64,000 bases of DNA. Source: a virus. This document shows positions 26,270 to 37,260 of the stretch, piece by piece. The notes under the pieces are model-generated. The model did no database searches. It worked only from the letters and a program-made list of their open reading frames with translations, and was not told the DNA's origin. Within the stretch, counting starts at the first letter, position 1; each line of letters starts with the position of its first letter. A program made the position numbers and the translations under genes. The DNA lies in the IMG/VR virus record IMGVR_UViG_3300022591_000004, positions 31,669-95,668 of that record; one strand, 5' to 3'.

Positions 26270-27253
26270 CTAACGATTGTAGGCAGGAGGAATGTACCGC
26301 TCCATATATGGCCCATAAATAGGATGGACTTTGGCGTACTTGTAAAACCTATCAATTTTGTCTTTATTACTAGGGTCTTTAACAAAAGTTAAATAAGACT
26401 GCTTAATCTCATCAGCGTATTCCTTTTTAGAAAGCAGTTTGGGGTTGGCCCCACTAAGTCGGTAGCTATCTGATTCAACAACAAAGTTTACATTATTTAA
26501 GTACAGATGTGATATAGGGACTACTTGATTAGGAGAAACTAAAGAAAACCCTGCGTCTAGCAAATTCATGGTTTGAATGAGTTCTTCTTCCCAAAATATA
26601 GTTGTTTCAGGAAGACCTGAGTATTCATAGAAATGCTTATTTGAAAACGCGAACTGAGCACTGAACTTTACTGCAGGCAAAAACAGCTCACCTCTTAAAA
26701 ATGAGGGTTCATGCACCAGGTCTTTATCTTCCCAACTAGGCAAACCACCAGCAAATTTAAAGTCTTTTATAAAAAAACAGTACTTAGCAACACGTGGTCG
26801 GTTGTAGTAATCACGCATCCCTGCGTCATCATGCTCGTAAGAAGGAAGATAAGACGTTAAAATCGTCTTCTCATTTTTAGTTTCCTTAACTGCATCTGTA
26901 AACATATCAACAAGTTTGGTATCCCAGTCCTTATCAAACATTGTGTGAGAGTCTATCTGCAGTATGTAATCCTCGTTATTGTACATAGATAAAGCAGTGT
27001 TTCTACCGAACCCAATGCTAGGTGTGTACTCTCCAACTTTAAAGTGTTTAATCTGTATTTGTGGGTACCTTTTTAACGGTAAAACTTTATTGTTAAAGAA
27101 CTCACTTTCGGATAAACCATTGTTTGCAGGAACCTCCATGAATACAAGACCAATTGAAATGTCCTGCGGGTTACTGGCGTTCTCTATGGCTTCCTGAACG
27201 GTAAAGGGCAACTGATTGTCTAAAAAACTAGGTATAGCAATGTAGATAGACAT
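26270..27253 (-). CDS. Glycosyltransferase, GT60/GlcNAc-transferase-like
   Basis: A 327-residue protein. The opening IYIAIPSFLD, the segment SIGFGRNTALSMYNNEDYILQIDSH near residues 78-102 with its D-x-D/H pair, then FDKDWDTKLVDMF, GLPSWEDK and GLPETTIFWEEELIQTMNLL match polypeptide GlcNAc transferases of the GT60 type, known for modifying hydroxyproline or Thr/Ser in eukaryotes. It is embedded among fibre genes, so a virion protein is the likely acceptor. The substrate is inferred, not shown. Confidence 0.75.
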   Translation of the reverse strand: MSIYIAIPSFLDNQLPFTVQEAIENASNPQDISIGLVFMEVPANNGLSESEFFNNKVLPLKRYPQIQIKHFKVGEYTPSIGFGRNTALSMYNNEDYILQIDSHTMFDKDWDTKLVDMFTDAVKETKNEKTILTSYLPSYEHDDAGMRDYYNRPRVAKYCFFIKDFKFAGGLPSWEDKDLVHEPSFLRGELFLPAVKFSAQFAFSNKHFYEYSGLPETTIFWEEELIQTMNLLDAGFSLVSPNQVVPISHLYLNNVNFVVESDSYRLSGANPKLLSKKEYADEIKQSYLTFVKDPSNKDKIDRFYKYAKVHPIYGPYMERYIPPAYNR

Positions 27254-27450
27254 TACTGCTCAACCTCAACAAAGGTGGGGTTGCTTAAAAATAACGCCGC
27301 TAAACGAGGAGTATTAACTTGAAACTTTTCAATAATGACGCCCTCTACAACAACTCCTAATGTTATGGGAGGAAACTCCACATACTCTGTTGGTGGAGGG
27401 GGTAAAAACTTAGCGGATTTTTTCACGAGTAGTCCTTTATCTTTCTCCAT
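27253..27450 (-). CDS. Small hypothetical protein, proline-rich
   Basis: A 65-residue protein with LPPPPTEYVEFPP and ITLGVVVEGVIIEKFQVNTPRLAALFLSNPTFVEVE, a beta-rich body. It overlaps the glycosyltransferase start by 1 nt and the upstream gene by 28 nt, so it is translated in one message with both. Its position suggests a partner of the glycosyltransferase or a fibre cap. No family known. Confidence 0.5.
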   Translation of the reverse strand: MEKDKGLLVKKSAKFLPPPPTEYVEFPPITLGVVVEGVIIEKFQVNTPRLAALFLSNPTFVEVEQ

Positions 27451-28103
27451 ACTTTTTTATACATGGCTTTTCCTGACCGTGTTTTTGCCGCCAGTAGCGC
27501 TGTTTTTTCAGTGCTTGTCCAGTCTTGGGCATACGTCCAGCTATCACGTTTAATAGGTATTATTTGCGCGTACGGAGTTCCTGCAGGGATTACTCCTTCA
27601 AAACCAGATTTAATAAAAAATGGGATATTTCCCCAAGCGGGGTATACATCAGAGTCCACAATTGCAGACATGGTGGTAAAGGGGAGCTCAAAGCGATTTA
27701 GGGGATGAGTAACCAAACTGCTAAATCCTTTTGGTGTTTTCCATCCCCATTGACTTGGCCAAATTAAATGGTTGTCCTCATGCCCAGCAGGACGAGGAAT
27801 AGTGGTTCCTGTCTGCCCTTTACGCTCACCCACTAAAGGTTCTTTTGATTCCCATTCAAGTTTTAAGTTGCCTTCAGAATCCCGTGAAACAAAAATATCT
27901 TCAGGAGTTACTAGCGCATAACCAGAAATAAGGCCGTCTAAAAATGGAGCACATGTTTTTAGCCCAGGTACTTCTTCCCCGTGAGGGGTCTTGTAATAAC
28001 GTTCTGCACGGGTATACCATTCAGGAATAAGTCCCTTTATTGGTACAGGCCGTTTCCAACTTTTATCCACATTATGACTAGGTATGAACTTTACAAGCTT
28101 CAT
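27423..28103 (-). CDS. Hypothetical protein, possible DUF6065/cupin-like fold
   Basis: A 226-residue protein. It opens with KLVKFIPSHNVDKSWKRPVP, contains GLKTCAPFLDGLISGYAL near residues 46-65, HPLNRFELPFTTMSAIVDSD, and ends near GVIPAGTPYAQIIPIKRDSW. The last motif, a beta-turn with P-x-G-x-P-x-x-Q-I, resembles small beta-barrel (cupin-like) proteins of the DUF6065 type found near glycosyltransferases. The likeness is from memory. It is co-transcribed with the glycosyltransferase. Confidence 0.45.
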   Translation of the reverse strand: MKLVKFIPSHNVDKSWKRPVPIKGLIPEWYTRAERYYKTPHGEEVPGLKTCAPFLDGLISGYALVTPEDIFVSRDSEGNLKLEWESKEPLVGERKGQTGTTIPRPAGHEDNHLIWPSQWGWKTPKGFSSLVTHPLNRFELPFTTMSAIVDSDVYPAWGNIPFFIKSGFEGVIPAGTPYAQIIPIKRDSWTYAQDWTSTEKTALLAAKTRSGKAMYKKVWRKIKDYS

Positions 28104-28119
28104 GTATGCTCCTTATTAT

Positions 28120-29874
28120 TTAACCCGTTACTTGTGCCGTAAAGCTTCCTATAGTGTTTCCTTGGTTTTGCGGTGATTGGACAAGAATAATACCATGCAG
28201 GTTACCCGAAGGGGTAACGGAGGATGTTGTTGCAGAGCCTACTGATGTGGCAAGCGTGTTGTCGCTATACGCGGTTGCCGTAACCGTATTTCCACTTACT
28301 ACGACTTTTAAAGCAGTAGAAATAGCTGTAAGGGCGGACGAAACTACTGTAGTGACCGTTCCTGCTACAGATTGGTACAAGTTAATCGCGTAGGAAGTTA
28401 CTGCCTTTGAATCAGGCGCTGGATTAGCGTAGGCAGTATACGCGTAGTAGTAGTAGCTTGTAAACGCGCTATTGTATACATAGTATGTATAAGGGGAATA
28501 GTACGAGTACGTGTAGTAATAGTGAGGGGGAGTGTATCCTACGCCATGTATCCAAGCTGTACCGTTGTACGGTCCAGATGTTCCTGCTGGGTGATACGAT
28601 GAGCCTGTTCCTGTAGCCGAGTAAGAGTAGGTATATGCGTAAGTGTATGTATCGTTTTCTACGCTAACAGCGGCCCACCAGTTGTTGGTGTCCTGAACCA
28701 TAAAAGCAATACCAGTACCTAAAGAAGCATTTAGTGAGGTTACTGTAACAAGGGGGCTTTGTAGGTCAACAGCCGCTATGGATGCGCTTGTTGAGCTAAC
28801 AGTATCGTCTGATTCCGCTAATCCACTTTTAGCGTACCAAACTCCTTTAATGGCTTGCCATAAAGTTCCCGATGTAGTTGTGCCCAAAGAACCAGAAGTA
28901 GTGCGATTAAAATCGTCCGTAACAATAGGAATAGGCGCCACCGAGTTAGATGCGGAAGAAGGCAAAGAAGAACCATTTGCATTAACAACAGTAACAGTAA
29001 ACGTGTAAAAAATACTGGGCAAAAAGTTTCCAGTAACTGTGAGTGGGCTAGAGGAGCCCGATACAGTAAGGGGAATACTAGGAGAGCTTGTTACCGTGTA
29101 AGAGGTTATTGACGAACCTCCAGTAGCCCCTGGTGTAAAAGGAATAGAAACTGTCGTAGAGTTTGTAACAGATACAGTGCCAATAACTGGGGCATCAGGA
29201 ACTGTTTTTATTGTTACAGAGGATGATGCGGAAGAGGCGTTTGATATTCCGTTGTCGTTTGTAGCCGTTACTGTAAAGGTATAAGAAGTATTTGAGTTTA
29301 GCCCTGTAACCGTAACAGGGGAGTTTCCCGTTGCAGTAACGCCGCCAGGACTAGATGTTACCGTGTACTGTGTTATTGCTTTTCCACCAGAAGCAGGAGA
29401 GGTAAAAGAAACTGTAGCCCGTCCATTATTAAATCCAGAGCCTGAGTTTACTGCGATAGCAGAGGTTATTGTTGGAGAGTCAGGCACAGATGTAGGGGTT
29501 ACAGATGTAGTTGTAAAAGGCGATGATGAGCCTGCTCCACTTGTACCCCGAACGGAAAATGTGTAGGAAGTACCTGGAGTAAGTCCAGTAGCGATAAGTG
29601 GGTTTTGCGAACTACTTGATGTAACACTGTCTGGGGTAGAGGTAGCCGTAAGCCCTGTAGCTGTTCCTCCAGTAGAAGCAACAGTAATCGGGATAGATAC
29701 TGCCGCGCTATTAAAAGGTCTATTTGTACCAATATCCGTAGGAGTTCCTACCGATAATAAATCAGGAACATCAGGTATCTTTACTGAAGGACGACTTATC
29801 TGGCCCTTTTGATACTGCTTATCTGAAGACGTTCTAGCAGAGGCAGACTCTTCGCTGACGTGTCTAGGACCCAT
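28120..29874 (-). CDS. Fibronectin type III repeat structural protein with Tyr-rich segment
   Basis: A 584-residue protein. Three FN3 domains lie near residues 40-310, each with the P-D-x-P-x-I/S opening and an S-Y-T-F-T/S-V-x-A/T/R strand. The C-terminal 260 residues form a different beta domain (DDFNRTTSGSLG, ATSVGSATTSS, FTAQVTG) that resembles a laminin-G-like or concanavalin sandwich. It contains a long tyrosine-rich insertion near residues 405-480. FN3 domains on phage tail or head proteins usually bind cell-surface carbohydrates. Confidence 0.75.
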   Translation of the reverse strand: MGPRHVSEESASARTSSDKQYQKGQISRPSVKIPDVPDLLSVGTPTDIGTNRPFNSAAVSIPITVASTGGTATGLTATSTPDSVTSSSSQNPLIATGLTPGTSYTFSVRGTSGAGSSSPFTTTSVTPTSVPDSPTITSAIAVNSGSGFNNGRATVSFTSPASGGKAITQYTVTSSPGGVTATGNSPVTVTGLNSNTSYTFTVTATNDNGISNASSASSSVTIKTVPDAPVIGTVSVTNSTTVSIPFTPGATGGSSITSYTVTSSPSIPLTVSGSSSPLTVTGNFLPSIFYTFTVTVVNANGSSLPSSASNSVAPIPIVTDDFNRTTSGSLGTTTSGTLWQAIKGVWYAKSGLAESDDTVSSTSASIAAVDLQSPLVTVTSLNASLGTGIAFMVQDTNNWWAAVSVENDTYTYAYTYSYSATGTGSSYHPAGTSGPYNGTAWIHGVGYTPPHYYYTYSYYSPYTYYVYNSAFTSYYYYAYTAYANPAPDSKAVTSYAINLYQSVAGTVTTVVSSALTAISTALKVVVSGNTVTATAYSDNTLATSVGSATTSSVTPSGNLHGIILVQSPQNQGNTIGSFTAQVTG

Positions 29875-30616: not shown

Positions 30617-31180
30617 TTAACTAATCTTGCTGAGGTTGTTTTCTACCGCTGTCTTATACATAGGGGCAAGGTCTTTTTCTAAAAGGTCATTAAAGAGCTG
30701 GATAGACTCGTCCTTGCGCCCAACCCACCATGCGGCAACGGCCTTTTGAAAAGTCAAAACGTACGGGTCTATATACCCTAAGGTGAGGGGTAGAAGGCCA
30801 AGCTCTTGGGTGGAAAAGTACAGGCCAACCTCAGCTGCTGTGTAGGACTCTTGCCACTTTTTATTGCGCTCATAGTATTGCGCCAACACAAACCATGCCT
30901 CTGGACGATTAGGTAGGTAAGCAATTGCTTTGTCTATTAAGTTCTTTACTGTATTGGTGCGATTTTTTTGGCGCTCAAAGCAGTTAGAGGATTCTAATAG
31001 TGCTGCGTAGACAAGCTCTGGGGTTGAATAGTATCCGTACTCAGCAGTGCGTAGGTAAAACGAGACGGCGCTCGCAGTCTGCCCAATCTTTTCGTACTCA
31101 ACTGCAGTCATAAAGCTAAGAGCAGGATTAAATGGGTCGTTGGAAATGTCGACAATTAGTTTGTTAATAGCCTCATACAT
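30617..31180 (-). CDS. TPR-repeat protein
   Basis: A 187-residue helical protein with tetratricopeptide-like repeats: NPALSFMTAVEYEKIGQTASAVSFYLRTAEYG, then NRPEAWFVLAQYYERNKKWQESYTAAEVGL, with KAVAAWWVGRKDESIQLFNDLL at the end. These are protein-binding superhelices. ATG 31180 is preferred because GGAGG lies 7 nt upstream; an ATG 24 nt earlier is possible. It overlaps the beta-propeller gene by 8 nt, so it may be a scaffold for glycan-modifying proteins; TPRs are common in O-GlcNAc-type systems. Confidence 0.65.
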   Translation of the reverse strand: MYEAINKLIVDISNDPFNPALSFMTAVEYEKIGQTASAVSFYLRTAEYGYYSTPELVYAALLESSNCFERQKNRTNTVKNLIDKAIAYLPNRPEAWFVLAQYYERNKKWQESYTAAEVGLYFSTQELGLLPLTLGYIDPYVLTFQKAVAAWWVGRKDESIQLFNDLLEKDLAPMYKTAVENNLSKIS

Positions 31181-32171
31181 TGAGTGCCTCCTCGATGAGT
31201 TCATCTACCACTGTAGCTGGCACTTCTAGTACAAAGGCAGCGTTATCAACAAAACCAAAACTAATAATAAGAGAACTGTCATGTACTGCTGCTCCTGCCG
31301 CGAATTCAATTTGACCATCTAAGAATGACCATGACTGTGGGGATACTCCAATTAGGTTAAGCTCAGAATCCCACACACATAAACGATGGCGGTAAGTGCC
31401 ATTTTTTTGCCCCAAGTAATTCTTAAAGAGAACTACCTCATGGGTAATAGCAATATAGTTATCGCCCCACTTGACGAGCTGGCTACCGCCACGTTGGTCA
31501 GCGTTGACTACTTTACCTGGTGTTACCTGTACCTGAGTGCACTTCTCTTCATTAGGGTAAGCCTGAACAACCTCAGTAGGAGAAGTCCACTTGATGTACT
31601 GGTATTCTTTATCAAGAATAGGCATCCAGTTTTTTTCGCAGTAAGACTCTGGATTAACAGGGGCAGGTATGCGAGTGCGCGAAATCTCTTTCGCTGTCCA
31701 TGCATCCTTATCAATCTCTAGCTCAGAAAGCTCCATACGCCCCTGACCATTAGTGGTGGTGTCTCGGCGCACACCAGTTCCGTAATACCTGCCGTCCCAT
31801 TTTACGAGTCGAGCATCTTCTAGACCAACAAATGTCCAGATAGGTTGAACGTCTAACAGGGTAGTGTCGATAAGGGTGTAGTTAATGACGTTGTAGTCTT
31901 TATCCAAACGGCAGAAATAGTTCGCTGTTACTAAGCGTTGGTCTTCTTCTGGATGCAGATAAGAAAGCGGGCCCCAGATGCTAGGAAAGCGCTGGTCGTT
32001 CTCAGCGTGATAAAGGGTGTAGTTGATATGGCGCAAGATACAAAGGATGTCCCCATCATCGTCTATAAAGATAGATGGGTTCATCAGCCCTGTACCCTGA
32101 GTAACCTCAGCGGGGATAATAAGCGGCTTTAATCTACCGCCAGCCTGTACCGATTTTTGCACCAAGTTCAT
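31173..32171 (-). CDS. Beta-propeller glycosidase/phosphorylase-like protein
   Basis: A 332-residue protein. MNPSIFIDDDGDILCILRHINY, then IWTFVGLEDARLVKWDGRYYGTGVRRD near residues 118-144, then CEKNWMPILDKEYQYIKWTSP and RGGSQLVKWGDNYIAITHEV resemble five-bladed propeller folds of GH130/GH43-like enzymes, with GLEDARL a typical substrate-site motif. Such phage proteins may trim or transfer sugars. The gene is between a TPR and a glycosyltransferase gene. Catalytic identity is uncertain. Confidence 0.6.
   Translation of the reverse strand: MNLVQKSVQAGGRLKPLIIPAEVTQGTGLMNPSIFIDDDGDILCILRHINYTLYHAENDQRFPSIWGPLSYLHPEEDQRLVTANYFCRLDKDYNVINYTLIDTTLLDVQPIWTFVGLEDARLVKWDGRYYGTGVRRDTTTNGQGRMELSELEIDKDAWTAKEISRTRIPAPVNPESYCEKNWMPILDKEYQYIKWTSPTEVVQAYPNEEKCTQVQVTPGKVVNADQRGGSQLVKWGDNYIAITHEVVLFKNYLGQKNGTYRHRLCVWDSELNLIGVSPQSWSFLDGQIEFAAGAAVHDSSLIISFGFVDNAAFVLEVPATVVDELIEEALNV
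32116..32133. repeat. 18-bp direct repeat, copy 1
   Basis: ATAATAAGCGGCTTTAAT, identical to the copy at 34189-34206. Here it lies inside the N-terminal coding part of the propeller gene. Confidence 0.7.
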
Positions 32172-32187: not shown

Positions 32188-32883
32188 TTATTCCTCAGTA
32201 CGTGTGTTCCACCACATCGTGTAGTAGTCATAATCAAAGTTAAAGCGCTTCATATGCTGAGCGATAGCCCCAGTATGGGCGTGGACAGGAACTCCAACAG
32301 CTTTTAATTTACGAAAAAAGACAATATCTTCGCTGACATATCGGCCCTCAAGACCCTCTTGCTCAGCAAACATTGATTGCTTGGGGTACGCCTCACGAAG
32401 CTTAGGGACGATAGATTTGTGCATAAGCACCAGTCCCATACCAGCGCAATCTACCTTGATAACTTGGTTTTCAGGAAGGGGATGAACATGCTGGATAGTG
32501 AACTCATCCACGTCATTAAAGATGACAGGCATTGGATTAGCTAGGGCTCCTTCATCGCTCTTAGAGATAAAGTAGATTCCACTAATCACAGGGCGCAAAA
32601 CTTTATGGGCTTCAGCCCAAAGAGTTTTGAGGATGTCAATAGTCAAGACGACATCGCTATCTACCCAAAGTAACCAATCGGTCTGTAGGCTATCTGCCCA
32701 GCCATCAAAGACTACCTGGCGTTGGCGACCAATCTGGTTACCTGCACAACGAGCAAAATTCTTAATATTAATTCCTGCCGCCTGAGCGTCAAGAATCGTA
32801 TAAACAAGGCCTTGAGTAAATTTGCCGTCCGTCATTCCCCCATCACACCAAGCGATGGTCAGAGTGTCCTTATTAGATGCCAT
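32188..32883 (-). CDS. Glycosyltransferase, GT-A fold
   Basis: A 231-residue protein. The D-x-D-type motif is in WLLWVDSDVVL near residues 70-80; GNQIGRQRQVVFDGWADSL precedes it and VDCAGMGLVLMHKSIV follows near residue 145. RYVSEDIVFFRKLKAVGV has the E-D motif of GT-A enzymes. It probably adds a sugar to a virion protein or host glycan. Its start is within a 10-bp inverted repeat at 32882-32917. It is transcribed ahead of the propeller gene. Confidence 0.75.
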   Translation of the reverse strand: MASNKDTLTIAWCDGGMTDGKFTQGLVYTILDAQAAGINIKNFARCAGNQIGRQRQVVFDGWADSLQTDWLLWVDSDVVLTIDILKTLWAEAHKVLRPVISGIYFISKSDEGALANPMPVIFNDVDEFTIQHVHPLPENQVIKVDCAGMGLVLMHKSIVPKLREAYPKQSMFAEQEGLEGRYVSEDIVFFRKLKAVGVPVHAHTGAIAQHMKRFNFDYDYYTMWWNTRTEE

Positions 32884-32926: not shown

Positions 32927-34141
32927 TTAGTTAGACTGGACAATCTGCCAGCTAGTACCGTCAGAGATAAGCTTGCACCATTTACCTGCTGTTGCAGAGA
33001 GGATGGCCGTAGTTGCAGAGCCTCCAGCAAGTGGAACGACGTTACTAGATGCGCTAATTATTGCAGCGGCTGCAGTATTTCTAAAGTTTAGCTCTCGTCC
33101 AGAATAGCTTGATGCTGTCGGTAGTGTTACTGTACATGCAGCTGTAAAAGTAACTGTGTAGTCCGAGCCTAGTACAGTGTACGTTGATGTGGATACGGAT
33201 TTGTAGTTTACCCACAAAGAACCCCACATCTTTATGTATGTACCTGTTGCTGCAGCGTTTCCCGTGTTTGCTGCACTTCCAAGAGAAATTGTAGTAAGGT
33301 TTGCAGTTGCACTAGAACCAATATTAATTGTTTTACCCGAATTAGTTCTGGTGCCAATATTTATAGTCCCGTTAAAAGTGGTAGCGGTTGCAACGTTAAT
33401 GGTGGCAGGCAGAGTTTGTGCAATGGTGTATAAATTGGCTGTGCCACCTGCAGTTATGGCCTGCCAACTATCGCTATACGCACCATTAAACTGCGGGGCT
33501 GTGCCATACACTAAAGGGCCGCTTCCAGTTGAAGACTGTGAGTTAAAAGTAGTAATCCAAGAATTTTGCGTATTTTGTGAATTATCAATACACGTTGCTG
33601 TTATTAAAGACGCCAAAGCAGAGCTCGGTGGGTTTCCTGCTCCACCTTGAAACTGTGGGTTGGAGGTAAAGCCAGCAAGTTGCGTTGTTTGGTCTGATAA
33701 CAATACGTTGTATACGTTACCTGCGCTATTGTTCCAAAAAGTAAATGATTGACCTTTTTGCATAGTAGTTGCGTCAGGTAGGTAGTATGTTAAACCAGTT
33801 CCAGCCCCAGTTCCAGTTACTTCTTGCCAGTTTGTACTTGAACTAGTCAGTGTTACTGTTGAGATATTATCTGCGTTAGTTATGGTAACCGCCGTGGATG
33901 AGCCTCCACCACCACCGCTACCTGATGCACCTTGAACTCCTTGGATACCTTGAATTCCTTGAGTACCAGTTCCTGCTGGGCCTTGTGTGCCTGTGGCTCC
34001 TTGAGAGCCAGTAGTTCCTTGAGCACCAGTGGCAGTGCCAACAGATTGCCAGACAGTGCCTGTCCATACCCACGTACGACCACTGTAGGTATACGTGGTG
34101 ACGTTAGGGGTTAATCCTGTGGTTGGGAAGCTAATTGCCAT
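32927..34141 (-). CDS. Collagen-like tail fibre protein
   Basis: A 404-residue protein. The N-terminal part (FPTTGLTPNVTTYTYSGRTWVWTGTVW) is a fibre-tip module. GTTGSQGATGTQGPAG and GIQGIQGVQGASGSG form a collagen-like Gly-x-y stretch at residues 43-77. The rest is a Ser/Thr-rich beta domain ending in TAGKWCKLISDGTSWQIVQ. Such proteins form trimeric fibres. This is one of four collagen-like genes in the window. Confidence 0.75.
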   Translation of the reverse strand: MAISFPTTGLTPNVTTYTYSGRTWVWTGTVWQSVGTATGAQGTTGSQGATGTQGPAGTGTQGIQGIQGVQGASGSGGGGGSSTAVTITNADNISTVTLTSSSTNWQEVTGTGAGTGLTYYLPDATTMQKGQSFTFWNNSAGNVYNVLLSDQTTQLAGFTSNPQFQGGAGNPPSSALASLITATCIDNSQNTQNSWITTFNSQSSTGSGPLVYGTAPQFNGAYSDSWQAITAGGTANLYTIAQTLPATINVATATTFNGTINIGTRTNSGKTINIGSSATANLTTISLGSAANTGNAAATGTYIKMWGSLWVNYKSVSTSTYTVLGSDYTVTFTAACTVTLPTASSYSGRELNFRNTAAAAIISASSNVVPLAGGSATTAILSATAGKWCKLISDGTSWQIVQSN

Positions 34142-34476: not shown

Positions 34477-34490
34477 GCGTACCTCCAGGC

Positions 34491-34517
34491 TATTATGGTC
34501 TTAACAGCATCTATGGT
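34491..34517 (+). promoter_or_regulatory. Possible promoter of the plus-strand island
   Basis: TATTAT at 34491-34496 and TATGGT at 34512-34517 are -10-like hexamers just upstream of GTG 34528. No good Shine-Dalgarno precedes the GTG. A short or leaderless transcript is possible, as is frequent in Actinobacteria. Confidence 0.35.
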
Positions 34518-34527
34518 ACACTGAAAT

Positions 34528-34983
34528 GTGGAAGAGACACTAGGTAAACACTACTGGGCTACGGAGTTTCCCTACCCCTTGGGCCCTTCCGACAGTAACG
34601 CGGAAGTATTTAAAGAAGAACTTCTGGAGGGAAGCACCCTTCTCTTAGGCTGTACAAGGAAATTAATGCCGTTGAGCGATGTTTACCTGGATATTGACCC
34701 TTGGTATGCTGGGCCCAAAGTACGTGTGGGAAACTGGGTGGATAATACGCAGTTTTATACAAATATTATTGGGGACGGGGTGTTTAACTTGACCCAAGAT
34801 TTGTGTGATGGGGTGCTAGATATGGCGAGTAGATGCTCTAATAACTTTGTGGTTCGGTCCTTTAATTACAAACTAGAAACCATGAAAGTAGCCTCATATT
34901 TTCCAAAGCCAAAAGACTTTGATATCCCACCAAGCAAAACAATTTCTTTTGAAAAGTACAGTTTTTATATATGGAAATTTTAG
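34528..34983 (+). CDS. Methyltransferase-like small protein
   Basis: A 151-residue protein on the strand opposite to its surroundings, starting at GTG. STLLLGCTRKLMPLSDVYLDIDPWY near residues 36-60 resembles motifs I and II of class I SAM methyltransferases (glycine strand, then an acidic strand end). Later parts are NIIGDGVFNLTQDLCDGVLDMASRC and FVVRSFNYKLETMKVASYF. It is shorter than a usual enzyme (about 200). It overlaps the next gene by 13 nt, so the pair is co-translated. Activity is uncertain. Confidence 0.5.
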   Translation: MEETLGKHYWATEFPYPLGPSDSNAEVFKEELLEGSTLLLGCTRKLMPLSDVYLDIDPWYAGPKVRVGNWVDNTQFYTNIIGDGVFNLTQDLCDGVLDMASRCSNNFVVRSFNYKLETMKVASYFPKPKDFDIPPSKTISFEKYSFYIWKF

Positions 34984-36014
34984 CTGACGAAACAGTGGTT
35001 CAAGACCTGTTAAAGTTATTGGACTACCTAGATAAAAGCCAGTGGACACATGTTCCTAGTTTTGAACTTATAAAAGGAATACCTGTCATAACCAGGGCAG
35101 AGCTTAGGAATAAACCTATGAAAAAGGGGATTGCTCGCACCACTACATCGGGCTCCACAGGGGAGCCAGTAACCGTAGAAAAGACTTACTCCGACTATAT
35201 TTGGCATTTGGCTACAAATATACGAGAGATTAGATGGCGTAAATGGGACGTTACCAAAACTCTAGCGTCTATAGCGCCGACCAACAAGCTCGGTGAGTTT
35301 AGCTCTTGGGGAATTCCAAAGGCTATAGAGGCTGAACAAGGTCCCTCTTACACTATAGGACTGGAGCCAATATCAGTTCTTCAAAAGTGGCTAGAAGAAA
35401 TTAGTCCTCATTACATTCATACACGTCCAAGTATTTTAAATGCTTTAGACCTAACCAAACTTTCTAATCTTACGGACACTAAGGGTACAGGTGAGCTTGG
35501 AGGGACTATGTACTCCAGTGAAGAGTTTGGCACAATAGCCATTCAATGTCCCGATAACCCTTCAGTTATGCACGTTATGGAGAACCTTATTGTCGAAACA
35601 GACAAAGATGGTGGGGCTATTATTACTAGCCTTACTAATCCCTATACAAAACGGTATAAACTAGGGGACCACGTTACTTTGGGTGAGTGCACATGTGGAC
35701 GAACTTTACAAACTATTACATCTATAAAAGGTCGAGTCCGTAATATGTTTGTAATGCCTAATGGGGATAAAAAATGGCCCCTTATAGGCTCTCTTGTTTA
35801 CTACGAACAGTTTGGAATTAAACAGTATAAGGCTGTGCAAACTTCTTTATATAATCTAGACTTGTATATTATCTGTAGTCCTTTAGGTGAACGGGAAGAA
35901 GAACTTAAAAAAACAGTCCAAGAATGGCTGGGAGTTAAAATAAATGTAGCTATCAAATACGTTGAGGCATTTGATAGCTACAAATTTGAAGAGTTTATTT
36001 CTTTTATAGAATAG
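34971..36014 (+). CDS. PaaK/CapK-like adenylate-forming enzyme
   Basis: A 347-residue protein on the plus strand. ARTTTSGSTGEPVTVEK near residues 52-68 is the Ser/Thr-rich ATP-binding loop. GTMYSSEEFG near residue 180 corresponds to the Y-x-S-x-E motif. YKLGDHVTL near 232 and CTCGR followed by SIKGRVRNMFVMPNG near 242-265 are the later motifs. This is the pattern of phenylacetate-CoA ligase-like proteins that activate acids as acyl-adenylates. It is shorter than PaaK (about 430). Its 3' end overlaps the tail of the convergent DUF1566 gene by 11 nt. The substrate is not known. Confidence 0.7.
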   Translation: MEILADETVVQDLLKLLDYLDKSQWTHVPSFELIKGIPVITRAELRNKPMKKGIARTTTSGSTGEPVTVEKTYSDYIWHLATNIREIRWRKWDVTKTLASIAPTNKLGEFSSWGIPKAIEAEQGPSYTIGLEPISVLQKWLEEISPHYIHTRPSILNALDLTKLSNLTDTKGTGELGGTMYSSEEFGTIAIQCPDNPSVMHVMENLIVETDKDGGAIITSLTNPYTKRYKLGDHVTLGECTCGRTLQTITSIKGRVRNMFVMPNGDKKWPLIGSLVYYEQFGIKQYKAVQTSLYNLDLYIICSPLGEREEELKKTVQEWLGVKINVAIKYVEAFDSYKFEEFISFIE

Positions 36015-37260
36015 TTTGTATCATGCTAACATTTACTGCAGTTGTTCCCGCATCTGTCAAAACAATACTGAGGCTTCCATCAGTTCCTGTTGCTATAGTG
36101 TGATTTATTGTTCCACCTATTTCCACAACGCCAATTTCTGTATAACTACAGCTTGTTGCAACATCATTAGAAATAATTAAAAACTTCGAAATTCTTGAGT
36201 TTGAACCCTGCGACATTCTAACAGTTGTTTCAGTACCAGTGGATGCATATGAGCCTGCAATTTGAAAACTGTCTCCATCATTTGTATATGTTTGATAGAC
36301 GCCAGACACTAACTTACCGTTACTTAAATGAACTGTACCATTAACATACGCATCACCAGAATCGAACCTACTATTAGTAGAAAGGCCTCCGTTGACGTAT
36401 ACGGTGCCATTAATATTTAGATGTTGAGGTGCATCGATTCGCATTCCACCTTCACCTAAAAAGGTGATGTACTCCTGAGGATTAGTAGATGCTCCTGTTG
36501 GGTCAACGTTTCCAATATAAGACGCTACTGATGAGTTGATTCCAGCTCCGCCAATAAACTGTCCCAAAGGACCGCCATAACTAGAGGCGCTTAAAGGGCC
36601 TTGCCAATACGTATTAACAGGGGCAGTGATTCCACGACCAGGAAGACCAAGAAATGAACGAACAGGTATAGCTGTAGCCGTATAATCTCCTTCTGTAGGG
36701 TCGCCATACAAGTAGTGGTCAATCCATGTTTGAATATTTGTCCAGTCTAATCCCGTGCTATACATGCCTTCATACGTATCCCATCTAATAACTTGTGTAG
36801 GGTCATTAGGGTTAACAACGCTTGTCCAACCACTAGAGTCCCAGCTGTTATTTGGAAAGTACCCATAACCGCTGCCAAAAACTCCCATGCCGTAATTAGC
36901 ATACGTACCAACAGCAGTATCCCCACCAAGAGCGGCAAAAGCCTCCGCTAAATTAGGCAGTCTCCAGTCCGTGTACCCGTTCTGATTAAATGCTGCACAA
37001 TATGCCTGCGCATCGGCCCACGTATAGTTTCCTTGGGTACTGAGGACACTAACATCGGCATACATTTCAGAAAAAAGACTTGTAGCAGGGTCGTAGTAAA
37101 AAACAACTCCACCACCAGGACCCGTGTCGCTATAGTTGTAGGTCTTTAGTGCCGCAGAACCGATAGAGCCATCGGTGTTTACTTTTACAACTTGATTAGG
37201 GTTGGAAGAAATAGAACCAACCGAAAGCCCGTTCTTTACTTGAAAGTTTTTATCTGACAT
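36004..37260 (-). CDS. DUF1566/Lcl-domain tail protein
   Basis: A 418-residue protein. GPGGGVVFYYDPATSLF and then TWADAQAYCAAFNQNGYTDWRLPNLAEAFAAL near residues 80-110 match the DUF1566 (Lcl C-terminal-like) pattern, a C-type lectin-like fold. The C-terminal half is beta-rich: FLGEGGMRIDAPQHLNINGT and DSFQIAGSYASTG. Lectin-like domains are common in phage receptor-binding proteins, so this may be the adhesin carried by the collagen fibres. It is convergent with the plus-strand island. Confidence 0.7.
   Translation of the reverse strand: MSDKNFQVKNGLSVGSISSNPNQVVKVNTDGSIGSAALKTYNYSDTGPGGGVVFYYDPATSLFSEMYADVSVLSTQGNYTWADAQAYCAAFNQNGYTDWRLPNLAEAFAALGGDTAVGTYANYGMGVFGSGYGYFPNNSWDSSGWTSVVNPNDPTQVIRWDTYEGMYSTGLDWTNIQTWIDHYLYGDPTEGDYTATAIPVRSFLGLPGRGITAPVNTYWQGPLSASSYGGPLGQFIGGAGINSSVASYIGNVDPTGASTNPQEYITFLGEGGMRIDAPQHLNINGTVYVNGGLSTNSRFDSGDAYVNGTVHLSNGKLVSGVYQTYTNDGDSFQIAGSYASTGTETTVRMSQGSNSRISKFLIISNDVATSCSYTEIGVVEIGGTINHTIATGTDGSLSIVLTDAGTTAVNVSMIQTIL

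What the first reader, a model, noticed from the sequence alone, without database searches (positions are those of the whole stretch)
34528..36014. Opposite-strand pair: methyltransferase-like protein plus PaaK/CapK-like adenylate-forming enzyme inside the fibre region
Seen: two plus-strand genes overlapping by 13 nt in a region where all other genes are minus. The second has the TSGSTGEP loop, a YSSEE motif, YKLGD and CTCGR, the pattern of acyl-adenylate-forming CapK/PaaK proteins; the first has a SAM-methyltransferase-like motif I/II. They lie between tail fibre genes and share the region with two glycosyltransferases and a propeller enzyme. Known: such enzymes occur in capsule and O-antigen synthesis. 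Inference: a fibre or host-glycan decoration system carried as a moron. A function in phages of this type is not one I know.
Basis: partly seen in the sequence, partly recalled or inferred. Interest (0 to 1): 0.8.

Follow-up and report, generated by a model that had tools for sequence, protein, structure and literature searches.

The report
Phage methyltransferase–CapK enzyme gene pair
A pair of overlapping genes, a very small methyltransferase-like protein and a shortened acyl-activating enzyme of the capsule-gene (CapK/PaaK) type, recurs as a unit in about 25 distinct phage lineages, often beside tail-fibre genes, and probably makes a chemical decoration for the virion or the host surface.

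Summary
Two plus-strand genes (34528-34983, 151 aa; 34971-36014, 347 aa) overlap by 13 nt in an otherwise minus-strand fibre region of an uncultured contractile-tailed phage. The 347-aa protein is a shortened member of the PaaK/CapK adenylate-forming superfamily: profile comparison with bacterial CapK/PaaK proteins gives E=2e-34 over the whole length, and P-loop, E185, D233, R255 and catalytic Lys338 are conserved. The 151-aa protein has no sequence family but folds as a minimal class I SAM-methyltransferase (pLDDT 89). The pair recurs in 25 distinct phage lineages plus one diverged clade, with unrelated neighbours, under purifying selection, and the two proteins co-vary. The phage CapK forms one clade (100/100). 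Tail fibre/propeller genes are enriched within 2 kb. One methyltransferase is fused to an Lcl_C domain, the domain carried by the fibre gene next to the pair here. Cultured phages gave only two remote matches; the papers searched gave none. Best reading: a self-contained cassette that activates a carboxylate and methylates it or its product, to decorate virion fibres or a glycan precursor. Substrate and target are unknown; the decoration step is inference. A new variant of known enzyme families.

The parts
34528..34983 (+). Gene 1: 151-aa minimal class I SAM-methyltransferase-like protein (GTG start)
   Evidence: AlphaFold2 model pLDDT 88.8; PDB fold matches are nearly all methyltransferases, best CcbJ 4hh4 E=2e-4; G41, T43, D/E55, W70, D83, G84 and others invariant in 38 relatives
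34971..36014 (+). Gene 2: 347-aa shortened PaaK/CapK-like adenylate-forming enzyme
   Evidence: hhalign against bacterial CapK/PaaK set: prob 99.9, E=2.3e-34; hmmsearch PDB 4r1l PaaK E=1.5e-5; NCBIfam FlxY 3.4e-7; P-loop, E185, D233, R255, K338 conserved
34971..34983 (+). 13-nt gene overlap, compatible with translational coupling
   Evidence: overlaps of 4 nt or more recur in most relatives
34477..34527 (.). 51-nt divergent intergenic region before the pair; no sigma-70-like promoter found
35945..35982 (-). 16-pair hairpin followed by UUUAUUUU on the minus strand, inside the 3' end of gene 2: likely intrinsic terminator for the convergent fibre gene 36004-37260
   Evidence: fold z-score -9.8 on the minus strand, 0 of 200 shuffles as stable
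36004..37260 (-). Context: 418-aa fibre-like protein with an Lcl_C domain, convergent neighbour
   Evidence: PF07603 E=1.4e-7, 32.2 bits, just under the 34.9 cut-off; an Lcl_C domain is fused to the methyltransferase in L019
37296..40541 (-). Context: 1081-aa protein rich in collagen-like Gly-X-Gln/Thr repeats (probable tail fibre)
   Evidence: sequence
32927..34141 (-). Context: 404-aa collagen-like tail fibre protein
   Evidence: phrog_819 tail protein E=1.9e-7, phrog_366 tail fiber E=3.5e-5
32188..32883 (-). Context: phage glycosyltransferase
   Evidence: phrog_34859 E=4.3e-104
26270..27253 (-). Context: GlcNAc-type glycosyltransferase
   Evidence: PF11397 E=1e-21
31173..32171 (-). Context: GH130-like propeller candidate
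   Evidence: PF04041 E=0.029 only, below cut-off
30617..31204 (-). Context: TPR protein with a weak match to a phage beta-1,4-glycosyltransferase family
   Evidence: PF13431 E=1e-7; phrog_13126 E=1.9e-4

Best explanation
The pair is a transferable two-gene phage cassette. Gene 2 is an active-site-complete, phage-specific PaaK/CapK-type enzyme that uses ATP to activate a carboxylic acid (or amino acid) as an acyl-adenylate and passes the acyl group to an acceptor. Gene 1 is a small SAM-dependent methyltransferase that methylates the same acid, the acceptor or the product. Together they most likely put a methylated acyl/aminoacyl substituent on a sugar or protein at the virion surface (tail fibres, perhaps on glycans built by the neighbouring glycosyltransferases), changing receptor binding or protecting the fibre. 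Shown: family of gene 2, fold of gene 1, pairing, conservation, selection, residue retention, fibre neighbourhood. Inferred: enzymatic activity, joint action, substrate, and the fibre or fibre-glycan as target.
For: CapK homology over the full length, E=2.3e-34, with P-loop, E185, D233, R255, K338 and a Cys/His set C193/H201/C240/C242 conserved in the phage proteins. Methyltransferase fold. 21 of 25 non-redundant phage lineages have the two genes adjacent on one strand and all 25 have both within 6.5 kb; the reciprocal search from gene 1 found CapK in 45 of 55 loci, including a clade only 40-43% identical. Distances of the two proteins correlate (Mantel r=0.62, 0 of 2000 permutations). Phage CapK is one clade, 100/100. 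A fibre/propeller family covers 18% of DNA within 2 kb of the pair against 3% beyond 4 kb. Gene 1 is fused to an Lcl_C domain in L019, the domain of the adjacent fibre gene here; those are the only two Lcl_C-like hits among 1116 ORFs around the pair. Bacterial relatives on plasmids sit in polysaccharide clusters. Neighbours in other phages include glycosyltransferases, a TylF O-methyltransferase, a sulfotransferase-like and a pyruvyltransferase gene.
Against: No substrate, acceptor or carrier protein is identified. Gene 1 matches no Pfam, PHROG or NCBIfam model and its helix after strand 1 is very short, so SAM binding is not certain. Fibre genes are not next to the pair in every phage; in some (L024, L040, L049) neighbours are unrelated. 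Three related contigs (L077, L083, L084) and a diverged clade carry gene 1 without CapK, so joint action is not obligatory. The CapK structure prediction failed (pLDDT 41).
Confidence: 0.4

Rival explanations
1. Host-surface modification: the pair adds an acyl/methyl group to a host capsule or cell-wall glycan precursor in the cytosol, blocking later phages (superinfection exclusion) or altering the envelope; the fibre neighbourhood is only because fibre regions are where phages collect such genes.
For: Bacterial CapK relatives lie in capsule/polysaccharide clusters. Glycosyltransferases inside fibre regions of aquatic T4-like phages have been interpreted this way (PMC7029224).
Against: No multi-spanning membrane protein (flippase/GtrA type) is predicted anywhere in the 95.7-kb record. 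A WhiB-like gene suggests an actinobacterial host, which lacks LPS, so an O-antigen reading is poor for this phage. The immediate enrichment is for fibre proteins.
Confidence: 0.3
2. Small-molecule or nucleic-acid role: the pair makes a methylated acyl/aminoacyl metabolite or modifies a nucleotide, tRNA or DNA base, unrelated to glycans.
For: PaaK-like enzymes also serve natural-product pathways (AjiA1 6wuq is among the weak PDB matches). Neighbours vary widely.
Against: No recurrent nucleotide-modification or biosynthesis partner gene near the pair; no defence-system model matches.
Confidence: 0.2
3. Two independent, coincidentally neighbouring genes of a hypervariable island, each with its own function.
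For: Gene 1 exists without CapK in a few contigs (L077, L083, L084; L114, L115, L118, L119, L123, L124).
Against: The pair recurs in 25 lineages with otherwise unrelated neighbours, mostly overlapping, with correlated divergence.
Confidence: 0.07
4. Metabolic PaaK for aromatic-acid degradation, as annotated for some viral contigs in a freshwater virome study.
For: Same superfamily; PMC9554406 reports two viral PaaK genes.
Against: NCBIfam PaaK equivalog score 10.7 bits against a cut-off of 646; no phenylacetate pathway gene seen near; protein about 80-90 residues shorter.
Confidence: 0.02

Closest known systems
Bacterial CapK-type 'phenylacetate--CoA ligase family' proteins of polysaccharide clusters (e.g. 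Deinococcus CP029777 CapK; Pirellulales JALHMI010000014)
   Same: Whole-length profile homology (E=2.3e-34), same P-loop, Glu, Asp, Arg and catalytic Lys, same Cys/His motif
   Different: Phage protein is 347 aa instead of about 430-460: N-terminal region and a segment before YSSEE are missing; 29% identity to the best bacterial relative; separate clade 100/100; small methyltransferase partner not found next to the bacterial relatives examined
PaaK phenylacetate-CoA ligase (PDB 4r1l)
   Same: Superfamily, hinge and P-loop region
   Different: Far below equivalog cut-offs; no phenylacetate pathway context
FlxY flexirubin acyl-CoA ligase (NF053551)
   Same: Best NCBIfam match, 26 of 27 members
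   Different: 29 bits against a cut-off of 520 for the window protein
Small class I SAM methyltransferases (CcbJ 4hh4, TehB 2i6g)
   Same: Methyltransferase fold; acidic residue after strand 2
   Different: TM-score only 0.45-0.61 by query length; 151 aa, very short first helix; no sequence family match
Phage proteins A0A6J5KQB2 and A0A6J5T1K0 (uncultured Caudovirales, uncharacterised, BFVD)
   Same: Same family as gene 1: TM 0.92 and 0.89, 49% and 31% identity
   Different: Unannotated; whether CapK lies beside them was not checked
Host-recognition clusters of pelagimyophages/cyanomyophages (PMC7029224)
   Same: Glycosyltransferases interspersed with tail fibre genes, collagen repeats in putative receptor-binding proteins
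   Different: A search of that text for 'methyltransferase' found none, and no CapK-type enzyme is mentioned in the passages read

Membership tests
PaaK/CapK-like adenylate-forming (ANL) superfamily | Full-length profile homology to PaaK/CapK proteins | tested here: met
   hhalign prob 99.9, E=2.3e-34, 305 columns; the phage profile also recovers longer (about 430-900 aa open frames) PaaK-like proteins in 32 of 294 genomes of the Pirellulales relative's phylum
PaaK/CapK-like adenylate-forming (ANL) superfamily | P-loop (T/S)SG(S/T/A)TG and acidic residue of A5 | tested here: met
   G61, T63, G64 and E185 identical in all 31 proteins, S60 in all 30 phage proteins
PaaK/CapK-like adenylate-forming (ANL) superfamily | A7 Asp, A8 Arg, A10 catalytic Lys | tested here: met
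   D233, R255, K338 identical in 31 of 31 proteins; L110 has the classic GKFEEF. The assignment of these residues to motif numbers rests on alignment and general knowledge of the superfamily
PaaK/CapK-like adenylate-forming (ANL) superfamily | Forms acyl-adenylate from ATP and a carboxylate | not testable with these tools
   needs ATP-PPi exchange assay
PaaK phenylacetate-CoA ligase (equivalog) | NCBIfam TIGR02155 cut-off (646 bits) | tested here: not met
   10.7 bits
Class I SAM methyltransferase | Rossmann-like methyltransferase fold | tested here: met
   pLDDT 88.8 model; PDB matches with probability 1.00 are nearly all methyltransferases, though TM-scores are moderate
Class I SAM methyltransferase | Glycine motif after strand 1 and acidic residue after strand 2 | tested here: met
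   LLG-x-T with G41, T43 invariant; D/E at 55 in 38 of 38; the glycine motif is degenerate compared with GxGxG
Class I SAM methyltransferase | Match to a curated methyltransferase sequence model | tested here: not met
   no Pfam, PHROG or NCBIfam match
Class I SAM methyltransferase | SAM binding / methyl transfer | not testable with these tools
   needs binding assay
Phage moron (autonomous accessory cassette) | Present or absent independently of flanking genes | tested here: met
   unrelated neighbours in 25 lineages; the four flank orientations are about equal (8/7/6/6)
Phage moron (autonomous accessory cassette) | Own promoter and terminator | tested here: inconclusive
   terminator-like hairpins at the capK stop in L016 and L031; no promoter identified in the window
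Known anti-phage defence systems | PADLOC model match | tested here: not met

The most novel reading that the evidence does not exclude
A dedicated two-enzyme phage pathway, spread among phages of very different genomes (27-54% GC), that installs a methylated acyl or aminoacyl group on tail-fibre proteins or on phage-built fibre glycans: a chemical tailoring system for phage receptor-binding structures for which I found no described precedent.
Probability: 0.3. Interest if true: 0.78.

Novelty: new variant of a known kind. Interest (0 to 1): 0.6.

Why it matters
Phages are known to carry glycosyltransferases near fibre genes, but a conserved acyl-activating enzyme plus methyltransferase moving as one unit would mean that phages tailor their own virion or the host surface with chemistry beyond simple sugars. 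That would bear on host recognition and on the many unexplained genes in fibre islands. It also flags a likely misreading, since such genes can be annotated as phenylacetate-degradation genes in viral metagenomes.

Tried and rejected
AlphaFold2 of the CapK protein with a 9-sequence alignment gave pLDDT 41 and was not used. hmmscan of the single CapK protein against Pfam and PHROGs found nothing; profile-profile comparison was needed. tblastn in 50,697 phage records found only two remote gut-phage matches to CapK (26%, C-terminal part) and none to the methyltransferase; plasmids gave only generic PaaK/CapK proteins. The methyltransferase profile found nothing in 294 genomes of the Pirellulales relative's phylum or around the bacterial CapK genes, so no cellular parent is known; an empty search there proves little. 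Transport by homing endonucleases was considered because HNH genes lie near the pair in some loci, but near and far gene sets have similar HNH counts. Shared promoter motif: CTATGGTACACT upstream of the pair is not repeated in the window beyond chance. A defence-system reading was rejected. Literature searches for CapK or adenylate-forming enzymes in phages returned nothing relevant.

Full report
What is there. The two ORFs are exactly as described: 34528-34983 (GTG, 151 aa) and 34971-36014 (ATG, 347 aa), plus strand, overlapping by 13 nt. They lie between minus-strand genes for collagen-like or Lcl_C-bearing fibres, two glycosyltransferases, a TPR protein and a GH130-like propeller candidate. 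The record (95,668 bases, window = 31669-95668) encodes a tail sheath, baseplate wedge, portal and large terminase, so it is a contractile-tailed phage. A WhiB-like protein at record position 27944-28282, recognised by eye in the listing, suggests an actinobacterial host; one paper uses this gene as an actinophage marker (PMC10202952). No protein in the record has more than two predicted membrane helices.

Gene 2 is a PaaK/CapK-type adenylate-forming enzyme. Single-sequence Pfam and PHROG scans are empty, but NCBIfam gives several PaaK-like models, a 9-sequence profile hits PaaK 4r1l in the PDB (E=1.5e-5), and hhalign of 27 phage proteins against four bacterial CapK/PaaK proteins gives probability 99.9 and E=2.3e-34 over 305 columns. 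In 30 phage proteins plus the Pirellulales relative, G61, T63, G64, E185, D233, C193, C240, C242, R255 and K338 are identical. A metal site formed by C193, H201, C240 and C242 is inference. The phage enzyme is shorter than bacterial relatives (347 against about 430-460 aa): the N-terminal part and the piece before YSSEE are missing (alignments). The phage proteins are one clade with 100/100 support, although several bacterial rows have long branches.

Gene 1 is a minimal methyltransferase-like protein. No sequence library matches it. Its AlphaFold2 model is good (pLDDT 88.8), and the best PDB matches are class I SAM methyltransferases at probability 1.00, TM-score 0.36-0.61 by query length among the ten with E<=0.001; two uncharacterised phage proteins match at TM 0.92 and 0.89. 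L40, G41, T43, W70, D83, G84, R110 and others are invariant in 38 relatives and position 55 is always Asp or Glu. The first helix after strand 1 is almost absent, so catalytic competence is likely but not certain.

The two genes form a cassette. The CapK profile finds 44 loci in IMG/VR; with the window these fall into 25 phage clusters at 90% identity. In 21 the methyltransferase gene is directly upstream on the same strand, generally overlapping; in L020, L023 and L025 it is near but on the other strand, and in L031 one ORF intervenes. The reverse search from gene 1 gives 55 loci, 45 with CapK, including a clade (L108-L112) only 40% (gene 1) and 43% (CapK) identical. Flanking genes are different in nearly every cluster and their orientation relative to the pair is evenly spread. 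GC content of the pair follows that of each phage, from 27% to 54%. Divergence of the two proteins is correlated (Mantel r=0.53 overall, 0.62 in the core set, 0 of 2000 permutations). dN/dS is 0.03-0.26 for CapK and 0.10-0.40 for gene 1. In three related contigs (L077, L083, L084) CapK is missing; in L084 gene 1 is followed directly by the glycosyltransferase that follows CapK in L035, so gene 1 may keep a role without CapK. Six contigs with the diverged form of gene 1 show no CapK at all, but the records may be incomplete.

Context. A family of fibre/propeller structural proteins covers 18% of DNA within 2 kb of the pair, 10% at 2-4 kb and 3% beyond. Near genes also include glycosyltransferases, a pyruvyltransferase, TylF, a sulfotransferase-like protein and a nucleotidyltransferase. 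In L019 gene 1 is fused to an Lcl_C domain (E=9.6e-11) and in the window the convergent neighbour carries Lcl_C; these are the only two Lcl_C-like hits found among 1116 ORFs. Bacterial CapK relatives on plasmids lie in polysaccharide clusters.

Transcription. A 16-pair hairpin at 35945-35982, inside the CapK coding sequence, is followed by UUUAUUUU only on the minus strand and begins 22 bases after the stop of the convergent fibre gene; it folds far better than shuffles (z=-9.8 on the minus strand). It therefore looks like the terminator of the fibre operon. In L016 and L031 a 13-pair perfect hairpin lies at the CapK stop. No sigma-70-like promoter was found before the pair.

Mechanism. Most likely CapK activates a carboxylate as acyl-AMP and hands it to an acceptor, and gene 1 methylates acid, acceptor or product. 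The place of action (virion fibre or its glycan, or host-surface glycan) is inferred from neighbours, from the Lcl_C fusion and from the polysaccharide context of bacterial relatives. An LPS O-antigen target is unlikely in this phage if the host is actinobacterial.

Comparison with known systems. Gene 2 belongs to the superfamily but is not PaaK in the strict sense (10.7 bits against a 646-bit cut-off). I found no description of the pair; a freshwater virome study lists two viral 'PaaK' genes as aromatic-degradation genes (PMC9554406), which might be this family, untested. Novelty is therefore at the level of a new phage-specific variant and a new gene pairing; new chemistry is not shown.

Noticed in passing
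window 35945-35982 (-): A terminator-like hairpin for the fibre gene is written into the 3' coding sequence of the opposite-strand CapK gene.
   Followed up: yes
L019 9246-9995 (+): Methyltransferase-like protein fused to an N-terminal Lcl_C domain (PF07603 E=9.6e-11).
   Followed up: partly
L031 8146-9252 (+): The same methyltransferase-like domain fused behind an FkbM methyltransferase (PF05050 E=1.3e-12), with another methyltransferase-like ORF between it and CapK.
   Followed up: partly
L084 7529-9087 (+): CapK apparently absent between the methyltransferase-like gene and the glycosyltransferase that follows CapK in L035 and L051.
   Followed up: partly
record G000 27944-28282 (-), just upstream of the window (L127): WhiB-like protein recognised by eye, suggesting an actinobacterial host for this contractile-tailed phage.
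   Followed up: no
window 26270-27253 (-): GlcNAc-type glycosyltransferase (PF11397, E=1e-21), a family best known from eukaryotes (own knowledge), in the fibre region.
   Followed up: no
window 27423-28103 (-): 226-aa protein of unknown-function phage family phrog_7084 (E=5.5e-34) between the glycosyltransferase and a fibronectin-type fibre.
   Followed up: no
L045 11400-12965 (-): 521-aa protein combining a sugar-nucleotidyltransferase-like and a kinase-like (APH) region beside the pair.
   Followed up: no
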